DNA of 64,000 bases from Bifidobacterium breve (GCA_945889475.1 CAMDBT010000002.1:62001-126000), one strand, 5' to 3'. Positions 40,785 through 51,348 are shown, counted from the first letter of the stretch. Notes: generated from the sequence alone by a model not told the origin. Translations and numbers: made by a program.

Positions 40785-41956
40785 GTCTGATCGATCTCGA
40801 GAAGGCCCGCGACGCATTCGCGCAGGCGACCGACGGTACGGTCGGGATTGAGGAGGAGTTCGCGATCCTCGACCGCGGCAGCCTAGACCTAACTCCACGC
40901 TTTGAGGAGCTAAACCAGCAAGCGGCGCAAACCGACTCAGAGCTAGCCACTTCGATCTCGTCGGAGCTGATTCTCTCCGAGATCGAGATCCGCTCCGGCG
41001 CCGGCAGCAACGTCGCCGACGCGCTAGCGCGGCAACGTGCGATGCGCCAGCGCCTCTTCAGTTTGGCCGCGAGCGAAGGAGTCGAGCTGGGGTCGACAGG
41101 CACGCATCCGTGGGCCGATTACCGCGAGCAGCTCAACGTCCAGTCTGATCACTACCGCCGCGTCGTTGACGGGTTGCAGTACGTCGCTCGCCGCAACAAC
41201 ACCTTCTCGCTACACGTTCACGTCGGAATCCGCGACGCCGACCGAGCCGTGAGGGTTTGCGACCGGCTTCGAGCGTTGCTGCCGACCTTGCTTGCCTTGA
41301 GCGCCAACTCGATCTTCTTCGAAGGGTTGGACAGCGGGCTGGCATCGGTTCGCACGCAAAGCTTCACGAAGTCATTCCCGCGTTGCGGTGTGCCCGACGC
41401 CTACGGGTCGTGGGCGAGCTACCACGATTACCTCGAGCTGCTGCTGGCCACGGGTTCGATCGAAGAAGACACGCAGGTTTGGTGGTCGGTGCGGCCGCAC
41501 CTAGCTTTCGGCACCGTTGAAGTGCGGATCTGCGACGCTCAGTCAACCGCTGAGGAATCGAATGCGCTGATCGAGCTGATCGTCGCTTGCGTGCTCCAAT
41601 GCGCCCGCGACGATGACGAGGGAAGGCCAATCTTTGAGCCCCCTGCGCGGCTGATTGAGGAGAACCTATGGCGCGCGATCCGCTGGGGTGCTAGCGGGGA
41701 GCTGATCGATCTGGAGAGCGGGCGCTGTCGGCCGGCGCGTGCCGCGTTCGACGATCTGCTCCAGTGGACGGCGCCGGTTCGAGCCGAGTTGGGGATAAGT
41801 CCCGTCTTCCCTGAGCTCAACGGCGCACAGCGTCAGGGCGGCGCGTTTGCGCAGGGCGACAGCATTCGCGACGTCTACGCTTCTACAGTGGCGCAGACGC
41901 GCGAATCATTTGGGGCCGATCAGCCGACAAGCACTACGGAGGTATCGACGTCGTGA
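40781..41956 (+). CDS. Carboxylate-amine ligase / glutamate-cysteine ligase GCS2 family (YbdK-like)
   Basis: TVGIEEEFAILDRGSLDL, GTHPWADYREQ, FSLHVHVGIRDADRAV, VEVRICDAQ. Confidence 0.93.
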   Translation: MSLIDLEKARDAFAQATDGTVGIEEEFAILDRGSLDLTPRFEELNQQAAQTDSELATSISSELILSEIEIRSGAGSNVADALARQRAMRQRLFSLAASEGVELGSTGTHPWADYREQLNVQSDHYRRVVDGLQYVARRNNTFSLHVHVGIRDADRAVRVCDRLRALLPTLLALSANSIFFEGLDSGLASVRTQSFTKSFPRCGVPDAYGSWASYHDYLELLLATGSIEEDTQVWWSVRPHLAFGTVEVRICDAQSTAEESNALIELIVACVLQCARDDDEGRPIFEPPARLIEENLWRAIRWGASGELIDLESGRCRPARAAFDDLLQWTAPVRAELGISPVFPELNGAQRQGGAFAQGDSIRDVYASTVAQTRESFGADQPTSTTEVSTS

Positions 41957-42453
41957 CCGACGAGAGCGTAATACCAGAGCAGCCCGAAGAAGTGGTTGAG
42001 GCCGAAGCGCCAGCTTCGGCTGCCGACGAAGACCAGGCGCCGCTCACGGAGGAAGAGATGCGAGCAGCGTACGAGGCCGAGCTCAAATCGCTGCGCGTAG
42101 AGGACCTCGTTGCCCAGACGGTCGTCTCGTTGCTCAACCTTGGCGCCCGTAAGGCAGGGCTACTGCCCGGAACTGAGGATGAGACCGACCCGCTCCAGGT
42201 CGGGATCGCGATCGAAGGGATCCGCAGGCTCCTGCCTCTGATCGAACCGGCGCTCGGTGAGAATGCGGCCTCAATCAAGGACGCGCTCGCCCAGCTTCAG
42301 GTCAGCTTCACAAAACTGACCGCTGATCAGGGCGGCGCGCCCGGTCCAGCAGCTGCGCCGGAGGGCGGATCGCCGCCCTCCGGACCTGGCGCTGACGGCG
42401 GGCAGGAGCCTGAGCAGAAGCCCGCCAGCGGCCTTTGGACCCCTGGCCCTTGA
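41953..42453 (+). CDS. DUF1844-like conserved protein
   Basis: SLRVEDLVAQTVVSLLNLGARKAGL…DPLQVGIAIEGIRRLLPLI; GTG start overlapping previous stop. Confidence 0.6.
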   Translation: MTDESVIPEQPEEVVEAEAPASAADEDQAPLTEEEMRAAYEAELKSLRVEDLVAQTVVSLLNLGARKAGLLPGTEDETDPLQVGIAIEGIRRLLPLIEPALGENAASIKDALAQLQVSFTKLTADQGGAPGPAAAPEGGSPPSGPGADGGQEPEQKPASGLWTPGP

Positions 42454-42593: not shown

Positions 42594-44666
42594 TTGTCTG
42601 CATTTCTTACCGACCATGGGGTCATCATTGCTGTTGTCTGCGCCCTGATTGCCGTCGCTTACGGCGTCGTGACGACAACGCAGCTGCTTGCGCTTTCGCC
42701 GGGTAACGCCGAGATGCAGCGCATCTCCGCCGCCGTCCAAGAAGGCGCACGCGCCTATCTCAACCGTCAATACCTCGTGATCGCCGGCGTTGGCGTCGTG
42801 CTCTTCATCGCCCTGCTGTTCATTCAGGACATCTACGTCGCGGTCGGCTTTGCGCTCGGCGGCATCCTCTCCGGAGCGGCCGGGTACATCGGGATGAACG
42901 TCTCCGTGCGCTCCAACGCTCGCGTCGCCGAGTCGGCTCGTGGCGGCATCGGCAAGGCACTGAAGGTCGCCTTCCGTGGCGGCGCGATCACCGGCATGCT
43001 CGTGGTTGGCCTAGCGCTGCTCGGCGTTGCCGGCTACTACGGCCTGCTCACCTCGTCCTTTGACCAGAGCCCCAAAGAGGCCGTTGACGCCTTGATCGGG
43101 CTCGGCTTCGGTGGTTCACTGATCTCCGTCTTCGCCCGCCTTGGCGGCGGCATCTTCACCAAGGCCGCCGACGTCGGCGCCGATCTTGTCGGCAAGGTCG
43201 AGGCCGGAATCCCTGAGGATGATCCTCGCAACCCGGCTGTGATCGCTGACAACGTTGGCGACAACGTCGGCGACTGCGCCGGCATGGCGGCCGATCTGTT
43301 CGAGACCTACGCGGTCACGGCCGTCGCCGTGATGCTGCTCGGTGTGCTGACCTTCAACGAGCAGACAACCGTTGCGCTCTACCCGCTGGTCCTCGGCGCG
43401 GTAGCGATCATCGCCTCGATCATCGGCACCTTCGCCGTACGCAGCGAGAAGGGCAACGTTGAACGAGCCCTTTATCAAGGGCTCGCCGTCTCCGGCATCA
43501 TCGCCGCAGTGGCGTTCTATCCGGTCACAGCTTGGATGATGGACTCGATCACCTTCAAGAGCGCCGCCGGTTCGGTTGCGGCTCCAAGCGTTCTCAACCT
43601 CTACCTCTGTGCGCTCGTTGGCATCGTCGTTACTGGGCTGCTGTTCGTGATCACCGACTACTACACCTCGACGCGCTTCCGCCCGGTCCGCAAGACCGCG
43701 GAGGCCTCTCAGACCGGCCACGCAACAAACATCATTTCCGGCCTCGCGCAAGGCCTTCAGGCGACTGCGCTCCCGGCCCTCGTGCTGGTGCTCGGCGTGC
43801 TCTGCTCATGGAAGCTCGCCGGTGGAGGCGTCCAAGGCATCTACGGAATCGGCGTCGCCGTGATGGGGCAGCTTTCGCTGACCGGACTGATTGTTGCGCT
43901 AGACGCCTTCGGACCAATCACCGATAACGCCGGTGGCATCGCCGAGATGGCAGACATGCCGGAAGAGGTCCGCGCCGTGACCGATCCACTGGACGCCGTC
44001 GGTAACACGACGAAGGCCGTCACGAAGGGCTATGCGATCGGCTCAGCGGTGCTCGCTGCAATCGTCCTGTTCGCCGGATTCAAGGCAGAACTTGCTGCCG
44101 AGTCCGTGGTTACGAGCTTCCCGATCGATGATCCAGCGATCCTGATGGGGCTGCTTGTCGGTGGCATGATGGTCACGCTCTTTGCTGCCCTCTCAATGGA
44201 AGCAGTTGGCCGCGCCGGTGGCATGGTCGTCGAAGAGGTCCGTCGTCAGTTCCGTGAAAAACCGGGGATCATGGACGGCACCGAGCAGCCTGACTACGGC
44301 ACCTGCGTCAGCATCGTCACCGCATCGGCACAGCGCGAGATGGTGATCCCGTCGCTGATTCCAATCGTTCTGACGACGATCGTCGGCTTGATTTCGGTCG
44401 CCGCTCTCGGCGGGCTGCTAATCGGCGTGATCGTAGTCGGCTTCTTCTTCGCGGTGATGATGACGGCCGGTGGCGGCGCATGGGATAACGCCAAGAAACT
44501 GATCGAGGATGGCGCGTTCGGTGGCAAGGGCTCAGAAGCCCACGCCGCATCGGTCACCGGTGACACGGTGGGCGACCCATTCAAGGACACCGCGGGGCCA
44601 GCAATCAACCCGATGATCAAGGTCGCGAACATCGTTGCGATCCTGATCATTCCGATCATCACCTAG
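42594..44666 (+). CDS. hppA: Membrane-bound proton-translocating pyrophosphatase
   Basis: 690 aa; [69 protein letters not shown] start with upstream GGAGG. Confidence 0.98.
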
Positions 44667-46035: not shown

Positions 46036-47955
46036 ATGGCGCGGCGCCGCCTCCATGGTCTCCAGCGCGTGCTGGGGGTCAACGCGCTCTTCTCCACCGC
46101 CTACGGCAACGTTGGCTCGTCGATCTATTACGCACTTGGCTTGGTCGCCTCGTTCGCGCTCGGTCTGACGCCGATCGTCTTTGTGATCGCAGGCCTGATC
46201 TTCTTCCTGACCGCCAGCAGTTACGCCGAAGCGACTGCCATGTACCCCGAAGCTGGCGGCTCGTCGAGCTTTGCGCGCCGCGCTTTCAACGAGTTCTGGT
46301 CCTTCTTCGCGGCCTGGGGCCAGATGCTCAACTACGTGATCACGATCGCGATTTCGGCCTTCTTCGTGCCGCACTACATCGGCGGGCTGTTCTGGGAGCC
46401 GCTGCGAACCGCCCCCGGAGACATCATCTTCGGCATCGGTGTGGTGGTCGTCTTGGCAGCGATCAATATCTTCGGTGCCAAAGAGTCGGCTGGCGTCAAC
46501 GTGACGCTCGCAGTGATTGATTTCGCGACGCAGCTACTGCTGGTGCTGATCGGCGGCATCCTCGTCTTCTCGCCCGATGTGCTGATCAACAACATCGCAT
46601 GGGGTGTGGCGCCGACCTGGACGGATTTTTTGATCGCGATTCCGGTCGCGATGATCGCCTACACCGGAATCGAGACGATCTCAAACATGGCCGAGGAGGC
46701 CAAGGACGAGGCGGTAACGATTCCCAAAGCGATCAATCGGGTAGTGATCGCCGTTTTTGCGATCTATGCGGCGCTGCCCGCCGTGGCGCTCTCAGCGCTC
46801 CCGGTTGTCAAGCAGCCGGACGGCAGCTACCAGACGCTGCTTGGTGTTTCGAGCGAGAACGGCGGCTACGCCGGAGACCCGGTACTAGGAGTCGTCAAAC
46901 AGATCGACCTTGGCATCTTCCAAGGCGCGGCAGAGATCTATGTCGGCCTGCTGGCGGCGACGATTCTTTTCATTGCGACGAATGCCGGAATCATCGGTGT
47001 TTCGCGCCTTGTCTACTCGATGGGGGTTCACCGCCAGCTGCCGGACAAGCTGCGCGAACTGCACCCGCGCTTCGGGACTCCTTGGATCGGGATCATCATC
47101 TTCAGCGCCGTCGCCTGTCTTGCGATCACGACCGGGCAGGCCGAGTTCCTCGGCAATCTTTACGCCTTCGGCGCGATGCTTAGCTTCACGATTGCTCACG
47201 TTTCGGTGATCAAGCTGCGCTTCCGGTTTCCCGATTTCCCGCGGCCGTATCTGGGGCCGATGAACGTCATGGTCGGCGGCGTCAACATTCCGATCTTCGC
47301 TGTCTTGGGCGCGATCGGCACCGGCCTCGCCTTCGTCGTCGTCACTGTGCTTCACCTCGACGTCGCAATCGCGGGGCTCGGCTGGCTGGCCGTTGGCTGC
47401 GTTGTCTACCCGCTCTATCGGCGCAGTCAGGGCCTCAGCCTGACGGAGACTGCATCGGTTGAGATCAAGGCGCAGGTCACGGCTGGTGAAGCGACCTACG
47501 AGTCGGTCCTCGTCGCGCTCGAACCGCCGTCGTACTCAGCGGCGGCGGTCGCCACGGCGGTGCGCCTAGCGGCCCGCAGGCGCCGCGGGATTCACATCCT
47601 CGTGCCGATTCCGATTCCATCTTCGCTACCGATCGATGCTGAAATGCCGGAGCAGCAGCAGCGCGCGCAGGCGATGATCGAGCAGGCGCGGCTTCAGGGC
47701 GGTCGTCTGGTCACCGGGCGCTGGATCAAAGTCCGCGCCGGGCAGGCCGGTGGGATGGTTGTGCAGGAGGCGATCGATCTTCGCGCCCGCGCGATCGTAC
47801 TCGCGCTGCCGCCTCGTCAAGGCGGCAAGCTTTTCGACAAGGCGCTCGAAACCGTGCTGCGCGAGCGCCCCTGCCGCGTGATCATCCAAAGCGACCCGGC
47901 GAGCCGCCAACCTGCCCTTGGCGAAGATCCAGCAGAGATGGAGGTGCCGCTGTGA
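46036..47955 (+). CDS. APC-superfamily permease with C-terminal UspA-like domain
   Basis: LFSTAYGNVGSSIYYALGLVASFALGLTP, YPEAGGSSSFARRAFNEFWSF; soluble C-terminus (YESVLVALEPPSYSAAAVATAV…VVQEAIDLRARAIVLALPP…RPCRVIIQS). Confidence 0.87.
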   Translation: MARRRLHGLQRVLGVNALFSTAYGNVGSSIYYALGLVASFALGLTPIVFVIAGLIFFLTASSYAEATAMYPEAGGSSSFARRAFNEFWSFFAAWGQMLNYVITIAISAFFVPHYIGGLFWEPLRTAPGDIIFGIGVVVVLAAINIFGAKESAGVNVTLAVIDFATQLLLVLIGGILVFSPDVLINNIAWGVAPTWTDFLIAIPVAMIAYTGIETISNMAEEAKDEAVTIPKAINRVVIAVFAIYAALPAVALSALPVVKQPDGSYQTLLGVSSENGGYAGDPVLGVVKQIDLGIFQGAAEIYVGLLAATILFIATNAGIIGVSRLVYSMGVHRQLPDKLRELHPRFGTPWIGIIIFSAVACLAITTGQAEFLGNLYAFGAMLSFTIAHVSVIKLRFRFPDFPRPYLGPMNVMVGGVNIPIFAVLGAIGTGLAFVVVTVLHLDVAIAGLGWLAVGCVVYPLYRRSQGLSLTETASVEIKAQVTAGEATYESVLVALEPPSYSAAAVATAVRLAARRRRGIHILVPIPIPSSLPIDAEMPEQQQRAQAMIEQARLQGGRLVTGRWIKVRAGQAGGMVVQEAIDLRARAIVLALPPRQGGKLFDKALETVLRERPCRVIIQSDPASRQPALGEDPAEMEVPL

Positions 47956-48152
47956 GTGCACCATCAGGGCGCAACTTTCACGCGTCGACGACAACGATCC
48001 TCTCCGCGCTGATGATCATCCTCGGCGCCGGTCTGGTGATTCGAACGATCAGCCTCGGCGGCGGCGTGTTTTCGATCGGCGTGGTCATGGGGGCTCTCTT
48101 TGTTGCCGCTGGCTGCGGTCGGCTTTGGGTCGCAAGCAAGGGGCGAAAATGA
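47952..48152 (+). CDS. 66-aa small membrane protein between two permeases
   Basis: GTG start overlaps upstream stop and stop overlaps next ATG; two hydrophobic segments. Confidence 0.7.
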   Translation: MSAPSGRNFHASTTTILSALMIILGAGLVIRTISLGGGVFSIGVVMGALFVAAGCGRLWVASKGRK

Positions 48153-50134
48153 TCGAAGGCGGCCAGCCAACAACCAAGCAGACGTTCAGCCGCGAACTCG
48201 GGTCGCCGATGCTCTTCAGCGTTCTCTACACGGTGATCGCGAGCGCGATCTACATCTGCCTCGGCGTTGTCGCGGGCTATGCGCTAGGCCTTACGCCACT
48301 CGTATTCCTTGCCGGCGGGTTGATGTTCGTCCTCGCCGCAATGACCTACGTTGAAGCTTCGTCGCTCCATCAAGAGCGTGGTGGATCGACCGTTTTTGCG
48401 CGCTTCGCTTTCAACGAGTTCTGGAGCTTCGTAGCTGGCTGGGCAATCTTGCTCGATTATGTGATTCTGCTCGCAGCGGCGGTGCTGTCGGCGACCAGTT
48501 ACCTGCAGGCCTTCTGGGCCCGGCTCGGCGAAGGCGCGCTAGAGAACGTCCTAATCGTCGCCATCCTGCTCTACATAGCGGTCCGCAACATCCGTGGCTT
48601 CTCGACTACTCGTTCGCGGCGGATCGCGGTGCTTGTTGTCGCCGACATCCTGCTGCAGTTGGCCTTGATTGGCCTCGGCGTGATCTTCCTGCTTCAGCCT
48701 GACACGCTGATCTCCTCGATCGAGCTCGGGAGTAGCCCAACCGTTCAGAACTTGATCGTCGCGCTCGGCATCGCGACCGTCGTTTCAACCGGCCTCGAAT
48801 CGGCCTCCGGACTTTCGGGCGAGGTCCGCGTCGGTCGCGCCGGCCTGCGCCGCCTCGTCACTAGCTCGTCGCTGACGGTTATCATCGTCTACACCGGGAT
48901 CGCAATCGTGGCGATCAGCGCTCAGCCCGTTATTGACGGCCGGACTGCTCTCTCCTCGACCTATAAGGACGCGCCGATGCTCGGGGTGGCCGCCGGCTTT
49001 GATCAACCATGGCTCGCTCAAGGCAGCCGCTTCGTGATCGCCGCAATCGCCGTCGTCACGCTGATCGCTGCCGCCAACTCGACGATGCTCGGCCTCTCAC
49101 GGCTGGCCTACTCGCTTTCGACCCATCGCCAAATCCCGAGTGCAATTGGCCGTCTACATTCGACCCGCTTTACGCCGTGGGTCCTGATTGTGATCGCCTC
49201 ACTCGTCGCGCTAGCGCTGGCCCTTCCTGGCGATCTTGAGCTGCTGCTCAACGTCTACGCGTTCGGCGCCCTGCTAGGGCTTGCGATCGCGCACGCCTCA
49301 GTCGTTCGGCTGCGGATCACCGAGCCGGACCGCCCGCGGCCTTACTCAATGCCGTTCAACATCCGAATCGGTGGCAAGAGCCTTCCACTGCCGGCACTAC
49401 TCGGCCTGGTACTGAGCGCGCTGGTCTGGGTCAGCGTCGTCTGGACCCATCCTTCTGCACGCTGGGTCGGCTTCGGCTGGATCGCGGCAGGGCTGCTGCT
49501 CTACCTCGTCTATCGGCTCTCGAGCGGCAAGACGTTGACAAAGCGCGTAACCGTTCCACGCAAAGCGCTGCGCGGCGAGCCTATCGAGGTCGAGTACGAG
49601 GCAATTCTGGTTCCAATCACCGGCAGCGTGCTAGACGACGACATCATGCAGACCGCTGGCCGTCTGGCTGCTGAGGCGAGCGAGGAGGAAGGTTTTGATG
49701 GAGAGTCACGGATCGAGGCGATCTGGGTGACCGAGGTACCGATGTCGCTGCCGATCGACGCCCGCCTGCCGGAGGAGGAGGCGCGCCGCGCCCGCACCGC
49801 GCTGGCCCGTGCCAAGGCCGTCGGCGAGGAGTACGACAATGTTCAGGTCGACACTGCGCGCGCGCGCGGCAGACGCGCTGGCCAGACGATCATCGCTGAG
49901 GCGCAGCGCCGCGGCGTGCAGGCGATCGTCCTCGCCGCCGAGGAGCCGACCGGGATTAGCGGCGGCGCTGTGCTCGGCGGCGCCTACTCAAGCGACCTTG
50001 TGATCGGCGACACGGCGCGCTACGTGCTCGCCAACGCACACTGCACGGTGATTGTCACGGCACCGCCATCGGGCGACCGCGCAGTCTCCGCAGCCGCAGG
50101 CGATGAGCCAGAGCCTGAAGCGCCGGAACGCTAG
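48149..50134 (+). CDS. APC-superfamily permease with C-terminal UspA-like domain (second copy)
   Basis: MLFSVLYTVIASAIYICLGVVAGYALGLTPLVFLAGGLMFVLAAMTYVEASSLHQERGGSTVFARFAFNEFWSF; C-term EYEAILVPITGS…GVQAIVLAAEEP…CTVIVTAPP; ATG 48149 within ORF 47918-50134. Confidence 0.87.
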   Translation: MIEGGQPTTKQTFSRELGSPMLFSVLYTVIASAIYICLGVVAGYALGLTPLVFLAGGLMFVLAAMTYVEASSLHQERGGSTVFARFAFNEFWSFVAGWAILLDYVILLAAAVLSATSYLQAFWARLGEGALENVLIVAILLYIAVRNIRGFSTTRSRRIAVLVVADILLQLALIGLGVIFLLQPDTLISSIELGSSPTVQNLIVALGIATVVSTGLESASGLSGEVRVGRAGLRRLVTSSSLTVIIVYTGIAIVAISAQPVIDGRTALSSTYKDAPMLGVAAGFDQPWLAQGSRFVIAAIAVVTLIAAANSTMLGLSRLAYSLSTHRQIPSAIGRLHSTRFTPWVLIVIASLVALALALPGDLELLLNVYAFGALLGLAIAHASVVRLRITEPDRPRPYSMPFNIRIGGKSLPLPALLGLVLSALVWVSVVWTHPSARWVGFGWIAAGLLLYLVYRLSSGKTLTKRVTVPRKALRGEPIEVEYEAILVPITGSVLDDDIMQTAGRLAAEASEEEGFDGESRIEAIWVTEVPMSLPIDARLPEEEARRARTALARAKAVGEEYDNVQVDTARARGRRAGQTIIAEAQRRGVQAIVLAAEEPTGISGGAVLGGAYSSDLVIGDTARYVLANAHCTVIVTAPPSGDRAVSAAAGDEPEPEAPER

Positions 50135-50145
50135 GATTCGCAGCG

Positions 50146-50583
50146 ATGTCATTCGTGCTCATTGTCGGCTCAGGCCGCGTCGGATCGATCGTTGCGCGCG
50201 ACCTTCTGGCAGCTGGCCATGAAGTCTCAGTGCTTGATGGAGATCCGCTCTCGCATGAGCGCCTCGACGCGGGACAAGAGTCAACGTGGGAGGGGGCAGG
50301 TGGCCGCTTCACGATCGGCCAAGCGATCGAACGCGACGCCCTAGTTGAAGCCGGCATTGAGCGCGCAGATGTCTTCATCGCCGCCACAAATGGCGACAAC
50401 ACGAACTTAACGATCGCCCAGATCGCGCAGAAGATGTTCAACGTTCCACGCGTTCTCGTGCGCGTGATGGATCCGGCCCGCGCAGAGTGGTACGGCTCGC
50501 AGGGAATGGAAATAATCTGCCCGACCAGCTATGCGGTAACGATGTTTGAGACGGCGCTCGGGCTTCCCGGAGCGGACGGCTAA
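50146..50583 (+). CDS. TrkA-N (RCK/KTN) NAD-binding protein, short form
   Basis: VLIVGSGRVGSIVARDLLAAGHEVSVLDGD, ADVFIAATNGDNTNLTIAQIAQ; no TrkA-C domain. Confidence 0.9.
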   Translation: MSFVLIVGSGRVGSIVARDLLAAGHEVSVLDGDPLSHERLDAGQESTWEGAGGRFTIGQAIERDALVEAGIERADVFIAATNGDNTNLTIAQIAQKMFNVPRVLVRVMDPARAEWYGSQGMEIICPTSYAVTMFETALGLPGADG

Positions 50584-51245
50584 TGTACGCGGTCGTCATC
50601 GGCGGCGGCAAGGTCGGTCTCAACTTGACCCGCGAGCTGCTCGCCAAAGGCACCGAGGTAACTTTGATCGAGGGGCGCCGCGAGCGTTATCTGCGGATGG
50701 ATGCCGAGCTCGGCTTCGTCGTTCAATACGGCGACGGCACCGAGTTGTGGGTGCTCGAGCGCGCAGGTATCCAGCGTGCCGATCTCGTGGTCGCGGTCAC
50801 CGGCGACGACGAGGACAACATCTTGATCTGCCAGATTGCGCGCGACAAGTACCAGGTCGAGCGCGTCATCTCACGCGTCAATAACCCGCGCAACAGGCAG
50901 TACTTTGAACTGCTCGACATTCGCCCCGCGTTTTCGGCGACAGACCTGATCCTGAAGCTGATCGAGCACGAGGTTCCGGACTACGGCCTCGTTCACCTGC
51001 TCGATCTTCCTGAACAGCGCCTTGAGGTGATTGAGATTGTTGTCTGCGAGGGCTGCCGAGCAGATGGCCTTGAGGTCCAGCAGCTTGAGCTGCCGGAAGG
51101 CAGCATCGTTATCTCGGTGCTGCGTGGCGGGAGCGGCTTCGTGCCCAAGGCGGAGACGGTAATCAACGCTGGCGACGAGGTGCTGGTCTGCCTCGATCCA
51201 AGTCTCGAAGCTCAGATCACGGCGCTCTTCGAAGCAGCCAAGTAG
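50583..51245 (+). CDS. TrkA family NAD-binding protein with TrkA-C domain
   Basis: YAVVIGGGKVGLNLTRELLAKGTEVTLIEG, VAVTGDDEDNILICQIARDKYQVERVISRVNNPRN; C-terminal TrkA-C. Confidence 0.92.
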   Translation: MYAVVIGGGKVGLNLTRELLAKGTEVTLIEGRRERYLRMDAELGFVVQYGDGTELWVLERAGIQRADLVVAVTGDDEDNILICQIARDKYQVERVISRVNNPRNRQYFELLDIRPAFSATDLILKLIEHEVPDYGLVHLLDLPEQRLEVIEIVVCEGCRADGLEVQQLELPEGSIVISVLRGGSGFVPKAETVINAGDEVLVCLDPSLEAQITALFEAAK

Positions 51246-51275: not shown

Positions 51276-51346
51276 TGCGGGATGGTGTAATGGCAGCACG
51301 CCTGGTTCTGGTCCAGGAAATTGGGGTTCGAATCCCTGTCCCGCAG
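51276..51346 (+). tRNA. tRNA-Gln(CTG)
   Basis: TGCGGGATGGTGTAATGGCAGCACGCCTGGTTCTGGTCCAGGAAATTGGGGTTCGAATCCCTGTCCCGCAG: 7-bp acceptor stem, anticodon loop TTCTGGT, T-arm GGTTCGAATC; CCA not encoded. Confidence 0.95.
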
Positions 51347-51348
51347 CT

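What the first reader, a model, noticed from the sequence alone, without database searches (positions are those of the whole stretch)
46036..51245. APC-UspA / 66-aa TM protein / APC-UspA / TrkA-N / TrkA locus: possible composite ion or solute transport system
Two APC permeases, each with a C-terminal UspA-like domain, flank a 66-aa membrane protein; all three overlap by 4 bp (47952-47955; 48149-48152), implying translational coupling. Immediately downstream are two TrkA-type RCK proteins (one lacking TrkA-C), with no TrkH/KtrB channel subunit in the window. Known precedents: KimA-type K+ symporters are APC-superfamily proteins with a UspA-like C-terminus, and paired TrkA proteins (CeoB/CeoC) occur in mycobacteria. 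Inference: the APC pair may be the membrane partner regulated by the RCK pair, with the 66-aa protein as accessory subunit. Substrate unknown; the N-terminal motif (FSTAYGNVGSSIYYALG) is not obviously KimA-like.
Basis: partly seen in the sequence, partly recalled or inferred. Interest (0 to 1): 0.68.

Follow-up and report, generated by a model that had tools for sequence, protein, structure and literature searches.

The report
Potassium-linked permease pair with RCK regulators
A conserved five-gene operon of soil and freshwater actinobacteria couples two transporter proteins to a pair of potassium-type regulators, and in many of these bacteria it is the only recognisable dedicated candidate for bringing in potassium, which could explain how actinobacteria with 'TrkA' regulators but no classical TrkH channel take up this essential ion.

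Summary
In detail: five co-directional, overlapping or nearly abutting genes (46036-51245) encode APC-Usp (APC1), a 66-aa two-helix protein (SMP), APC-Usp (APC2), an RCK_N-only TrkA (TKA1) and an RCK_N+C TrkA (TKA2). The order is conserved: of 74 loci fetched with TKA2 alone, all have TKA1 and 61 have the APC gene directly upstream. TrkH/KtrB is absent from the draft genome. Twenty-one relatives (89-99% complete) carry APC genes but no TrkH, KUP, KdpA or KimA; most do have small K+ channels. The three tested relatives without the APC pair carry KimA. Elsewhere the TrkA pair sits beside a true KimA, TrkH or kdp. APC1 keeps most of KimA's K+-site residues, several absent from amino-acid paralogues, but has Asn for Asp36; APC2's site is relaxed. 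TKA1/TKA2 match the TM1088A/B gating ring. Best reading (0.55): an RCK-regulated, heteromeric APC importer of K+ (or another monovalent cation), APC1 catalytic, APC2 accessory. Not KimA or KUP by sequence or tree. Substrate unproven; an amino-acid or osmolyte role remains possible. New variant of a known kind.

The parts
46036..47955 (+). APC1: 12-TM APC-superfamily permease with C-terminal Usp-like domain; candidate catalytic subunit
   Evidence: AlphaFold2 mean pLDDT 88; substrate-site residues near-invariant in 70 homologues
47952..48152 (+). SMP: 66-aa two-helix membrane protein, GTG start, 4-bp overlaps with both neighbours
   Evidence: conserved GGG loop and G..G.LF..aG..RL motif in 35 loci; only a weak HdeD-like hit E=0.0023
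48149..50134 (+). APC2: APC permease with C-terminal Usp-like domain; substrate site relaxed, candidate accessory subunit
50146..50583 (+). TKA1: TrkA_N (RCK N-domain) only, TM1088A-like
   Evidence: TM1088A 3l4b_A E=3e-20
50583..51245 (+). TKA2: TrkA_N + TrkA_C, TM1088B-like
   Evidence: TM1088B 3l4b_C E=3e-24; TKA1-TKA2 adjacent in all 80 loci
42594..44666 (+). HppA-type H+-pyrophosphatase, conserved neighbour of the operon (context, not claimed as a subunit)
   Evidence: identified by reading the sequence, no domain search run; homologue upstream of APC1 or TKA1 in many loci

Best explanation
The five genes encode one membrane transport complex for K+ (or another small monovalent cation). 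APC1 is the transporting subunit: a LeuT-fold secondary transporter, by analogy with KimA probably K+/H+ symport. APC2 is a paralogue whose substrate pocket is no longer constrained and which pairs with APC1 as a structural or regulatory half, plausibly through the Usp-like domains as KimA does in its homodimer. SMP is a small membrane subunit. TKA1 and TKA2 form a two-subunit RCK ring of the TM1088A/B type on the cytoplasmic face and set activity according to an adenine-nucleotide ligand. Shown here: gene content, operon structure, conserved synteny, residue conservation, absence of known K+ importers in many genomes. Inferred: substrate, coupling ion, complex formation, ligand.
For: Synteny: 61/74 TKA2-anchored loci have the APC gene directly upstream in the same orientation, TKA1 adjacent in 80/80; also single APC1-TKA1-TKA2 in L175 and APC1-APC1'-TKA in L169/L176. 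Genome content: TrkH in 90/199 Thermoleophilia but in no sampled genome of families f2-f4 of the order; 21 of 43 fully tested order genomes (20 of them >=90% complete) have APC genes and no TrkH/KUP/KdpA/KimA; G005 and G118 also lack Ion_trans_2 channels. Replacement: G121, G139, G142 lack the APC pair and all have KimA; in genomes >=90% complete KimA is in 3 of 4 APC-less against 3 of 46 APC-bearing (Fisher p=0.004, not corrected for shared ancestry). Same slot elsewhere: in L170/L171 a true KimA (E=4e-112 to 6S3K) is divergently adjacent to the TrkA pair; the closest outgroup TKA1/TKA2 pairs end a kdpABC-kdpD-usp operon; TrkH lies in the same locus as the APC genes in several f7 genomes. Site: APC1 Y100/T103/S107/T210/E213/Y376 match KimA Y118/T121/S125/T230/E233/Y377; T103, S107, T210 and Y376 are absent from all 16 amino-acid-type paralogues; APC1 site entropy 0.03 vs 1.12 for its membrane domain, APC2 1.29 vs 1.50. 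Two-subunit ring precedent TM1088A/B (PMC4380455). Rv2690c and adjacent ceoB share a rifampicin-survival phenotype in M. tuberculosis (PMC12216072).
Against: APC1 has Asn, not Asp, at the KimA Asp36 position in either possible TM1 register (N25, or the unconserved N16), and D36N abolishes K+ uptake in KimA (PMC6994465). Closest sequence and fold relatives are amino-acid transporters (BasC, GkApcT, CAT4); KimA ranks behind. Most genomes also have 2-TM K+ channels (52/61), and the window's own genome has a KUP, so sole-importer status is not general. 13 of 74 TKA loci lack an adjacent APC; Conexibacter S30A1 (L106) keeps the TrkA pair with no APC1/2 or TrkH. The KimA replacement rests on two neighbouring genera. 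No transport or binding data; no complex prediction was possible.
Confidence: 0.55

Rival explanations
1. APC1/APC2 transport an amino acid or compatible solute, and the RCK pair adjusts this transport to ionic or osmotic state; K+ is the signal, not the cargo.
For: Best sequence and structure matches are amino-acid transporters; AA_permease_2 domain; Asn instead of the K+-binding Asp; TM1 keeps a G-S-S-I-Y helix break like the GxGIY of amino-acid paralogues.
Against: Pocket residues T103/S107/T210/Y376 match KimA and not the amino-acid paralogues; complementary distribution with KimA and absence of other K+ importers in 21 genomes; standalone TrkA_N/TrkA_C pairs are known partners of K+ transporters.
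Confidence: 0.22
2. The TrkA pair regulates another K+ channel or transporter; the APC genes are functionally separate neighbours in an ion/osmotic-homeostasis cluster.
For: TKA pair kept without an adjacent APC in 13/74 loci and in Conexibacter S30A1, which has neither APC1/2 nor TrkH; APC pair about 150 kb from the TKA pair in Conexibacter DBS9H8; channels in 52/61 genomes; TrkH next to the locus in f7.
Against: Tight gene order across an order and recurrence of APC-TrkA adjacency in other families and, with a different APC (KimA), in other actinobacteria.
Confidence: 0.14
3. The complex exports K+ or a solute (efflux or exchange), with the RCK pair opening it under osmotic down-shift or acid stress, as in KefC-type systems.
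For: RCK domains also control efflux (KefC is among the PDB matches); a relaxed site in one of two halves would fit a regulated leak; SMP has a faint HdeD-like hit.
Against: Genomes otherwise lacking an importer keep the operon; KimA, the apparent substitute, is an importer (PMC6994465).
Confidence: 0.09

Closest known systems
KimA (B. subtilis, PDB 6S3K/8B70), K+/H+ symporter of the KUP family
   Same: APC fold, membrane domain plus C-terminal cytosolic alpha/beta domain, conserved Tyr/Thr/Ser/Thr/Glu/Tyr pocket, Tyr118 and Asn237 equivalents; KimA sits next to a TrkA pair in other actinobacteria
   Different: No Asp36 (Asn25), D117 mostly Asn99, no HNQS c-di-AMP motif, separate clade on a long branch, two non-equivalent subunits plus a small protein, and an RCK pair in the operon
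KUP/Kup family (PF02705)
   Same: TM1 stretch YGNVGSSIYYAL resembles FGDIGTSPLYSL of the genome's own KUP
   Different: No PF02705 match; profile comparison with KUP not significant
TM1088A/TM1088B-TM1089 Trk system of Thermotoga maritima
   Same: Two-subunit RCK ring: one RCK_N-only chain, one RCK_N+RCK_C chain (PMC4380455)
   Different: Membrane partner there is TrkH (TM1089); here an APC pair. Both chains here keep a GxGxxG motif
CeoB/CeoC Trk system of Mycobacterium tuberculosis
   Same: Paired TrkA proteins with an adjacent APC gene (Rv2690c; adjacency to ceoB stated in PMC12216072, its APC nature from general knowledge); described without a TrkH (PMC13163235)
   Different: Both CeoB and CeoC carry TrkA_C (general knowledge); the APC beside the pair in two Mycobacteriaceae-like genomes is a true KimA in divergent orientation, single, without SMP
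BasC / GkApcT amino-acid transporters
   Same: TM-domain fold (TM-score normalised to target 0.83-0.87), AA_permease_2 profile
   Different: No Usp domain, different pocket residues, no RCK partners

Membership tests
KimA | Falls in the KimA clade | tested here: not met
   KimA sequences form a separate 100/100 group; APC1 profile vs 6S3K E=3e-14, weaker than to amino-acid transporters
KimA | K+-binding Asp36 in TM1 | tested here: not met
   Asn in the window protein in both possible registers; N25 in 64/70, Glu in 6/70
KimA | Remaining pocket residues Y43, T121, S125, T230, E233, Y377 | tested here: met
   Y32 or Y23 by register, T103, S107, T210, E213, Y376, near-invariant
KimA | c-di-AMP site (His-Asn-Gln-Ser stretch, Arg337) | tested here: not met
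   No HN(Q) in APC1 or APC2; Arg337 equivalent not examined
KimA | Proton-coupled K+ uptake | not testable with these tools
   Needs a transport assay
KUP (K_trans) | PF02705 match | tested here: not met
   No match up to E=0.1
APC-superfamily permease with C-terminal Usp domain | AA_permease_2 plus Usp domains | tested here: met
   Both above curated cut-offs in APC1 and APC2; models
Trk/Ktr system | TrkH/KtrB membrane subunit | tested here: not met
   PF02386 absent from own genome and from all sampled f2-f4 genomes; own draft is 82% complete
Trk/Ktr system | TrkA/KtrA-type RCK subunits | tested here: met
   TrkA_N, TrkA_C; TrkA structures are best matches
TM1088A/B two-subunit gating ring | One RCK_N-only and one RCK_N+C chain from adjacent genes | tested here: met
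TM1088A/B two-subunit gating ring | Octameric assembly, AMP binding to the short chain | not testable with these tools
   Needs biochemistry

The most novel reading that the evidence does not exclude
A new class of K+ importer: a heteromeric LeuT-fold transporter made of one catalytic APC, one pseudo-transporter APC and a small membrane subunit, controlled by a two-subunit RCK ring instead of RCK gating a TrkH channel, serving as the main K+ uptake route of TrkH-less Solirubrobacterales.
Probability: 0.33. Interest if true: 0.82.

Novelty: new variant of a known kind. Interest (0 to 1): 0.6.

Why it matters
Actinobacterial 'Trk' systems such as CeoB/CeoC are described as two TrkA proteins (PMC13163235), which leaves their membrane pore unnamed. 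The data here suggest that in several actinobacterial lineages RCK regulator pairs work with APC-fold transporters (KimA in one group, the APC1/APC2 pair in another). That would extend RCK control from channels and antiporters to LeuT-fold importers and gives directly testable partners. None of the listed papers that mention CeoB mentions KimA.

Tried and rejected
Rejected: SMP as a spurious ORF (conserved in 35 intervals). Rejected: APC1 as a KimA or KUP orthologue. Rejected: 'no TrkH' as a window artefact. Weakened: 'the APC operon is always the only K+ route' (own genome has KUP; channels in 52/61). KimA in Solirubrobacterales is not next to TrkA genes, so the replacement argument is distributional only. 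Enrichment among APC-less genomes was significant for KimA only, not for Kdp (p=0.08) or KUP (p=0.27). TM1 register: MAFFT and hhalign align KimA D36 to N16, while motif logic and conservation favour N25; the AlphaFold2 model did not settle it.

Full report
What is there. The five reading frames are at the coordinates given, with 4-bp overlaps at 47952-47955 and 48149-48152, an 11-bp gap before TKA1 and a 1-bp TKA1/TKA2 overlap. Pfam gives AA_permease_2 plus Usp for both APCs, TrkA_N for TKA1, TrkA_N plus TrkA_C for TKA2, nothing for the 66-aa protein. The window lies in a 1.65-Mb, 82%-complete draft genome with no PF02386 (TrkH/KtrB) match.

Conservation. A search with TKA2 alone, blind to the APC genes, returned 80 loci, mostly labelled Solirubrobacterales or Thermoleophilaceae. 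TKA1 is adjacent in all 80; of 74 with at least 1.5 kb upstream, 61 have an APC gene directly upstream on the same strand. A hydrophobic 57-88 aa ORF with a common GGG...G..LF..aG..RL core fills the APC1-APC2 interval in all 35 intervals examined. Outside the order the unit is simpler: a single APC1-TKA1-TKA2 in L175, APC1-APC1'-TKA in L169 and L176. In the tree APC2 groups with APC1' (92/88), so APC2 probably descends from that second copy, which has Glu where APC1 has Asn25.

Genome content. TrkH occurs in 90 of 199 Thermoleophilia genomes, but in none sampled of families f2-f4 of the order. In a 61-genome order sample KUP is in 18 (including the window's own genome), KdpA in 16, a strong KimA in five plus one fragmented. 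Of 43 genomes tested for all four families, 21 (89-99% complete) have APC genes and none of TrkH, KUP, KdpA or KimA; the three tested that lack the APC pair (G121, G139, G142) all have KimA and Kdp. The KimA association gives Fisher p=0.004 in genomes at least 90% complete, but the three belong to two related genera, so it may be one event. Two-TM K+ channels are in 52 of 61, so a channel route remains possible in most; among the 21, G005 and G118 have none. In G005 the APC and TrkA genes lie on different contigs.

What the TrkA pair does elsewhere. In two large actinobacterial genomes of one family (unnamed; size and layout like Mycobacteriaceae) a TrkA pair is divergently adjacent to an APC that is a true KimA (E=4e-112 to 6S3K). 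I recall the same layout for M. tuberculosis Rv2690c-ceoB-ceoC; there, disruption of Rv2690c and of ceoB both enhance survival in rifampicin (PMC12216072). The closest non-Thermoleophilia TKA1/TKA2 pairs (139 and 220-222 aa) sit at the end of a kdpABC-kdpD-usp operon (gene names read from sequence). In other lineages TrkA genes sit beside TrkH-like proteins. In several f7 genomes TrkH is in the same locus as the APC/TrkA genes. All these neighbours are K+ importers.

Mechanism. TKA1 and TKA2 match TM1088A and TM1088B, a two-subunit octameric RCK ring in which the short chain has only the N-domain and binds AMP (PMC4380455). KimA is a homodimer held by swapped cytosolic domains, with K+ bound by Asp36, Tyr43, Thr230, Tyr377 and proton coupling by Glu233 (PMC6994465, PMC10284832). 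In APC1 the equivalents T103, S107, T210, E213, Y376 and Y100, N217 are near-invariant; T103, S107, T210 and Y376 are missing from 16 amino-acid-type paralogues of the same order. The exception is Asp36, which is Asn in APC1. Two TM1 registers are possible (N16 or N25); N25 is favoured because it is conserved and because YGNVGSSIYYAL parallels the KUP motif FGDIGTSPLYAL. D36N inactivates KimA, so APC1 must bind its cargo differently if that is K+. Cation-chloride cotransporters, which also match the model, use a TM1 Asn for K+ (general knowledge), so Asn is not disqualifying. In APC2 the same positions are relaxed (mean entropy 1.29 against 1.50 for its domain; APC1 0.03 against 1.12), suggesting a non-transporting half. 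Heterodimerisation through the Usp domains, the SMP role and control by the RCK ring are inferences.

Against. By overall sequence and fold the nearest solved proteins are amino-acid transporters. The TrkA pair can exist without the APC genes. No assay exists. I therefore put the K+ complex at 0.55 and the amino-acid/osmolyte reading at 0.22.

Novelty. The parts are known kinds; the combination (APC heteropair, small subunit, TM1088-type RCK pair, no TrkH) was not found in the held literature, which covers open-licence papers only.

Noticed in passing
window 42594-44666 and 41953-42453: An H+-pyrophosphatase gene (motif GNTTKA, the K+-independent type from general knowledge) and a DUF1844-like gene lie upstream; HppA is upstream of APC1 or directly upstream of TKA1 in many relatives, so it is a conserved neighbour of the operon.
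   Followed up: partly
L157, L158: In two outgroup genomes a kdpA-kdpB-kdpC-kinase-kdpD(N-terminal part)-usp operon ends with a TKA1/TKA2-like RCK pair, suggesting RCK control of Kdp.
   Followed up: partly
L170:5169-7340, L171:8446-11049: A true KimA orthologue is divergently adjacent to a CeoB/CeoC-like TrkA pair; candidate membrane partner of the mycobacterial Trk system.
   Followed up: partly
L087, L106, L177: Conexibacter genomes: S30A1 keeps the TrkA pair without APC1/2 or TrkH; DBS9H8 has the APC pair with SMP elsewhere in the genome in the order SMP-APC2-APC1.
   Followed up: yes
window 51276-51347: tRNA-Gln (CTG) directly after the operon.
   Followed up: no
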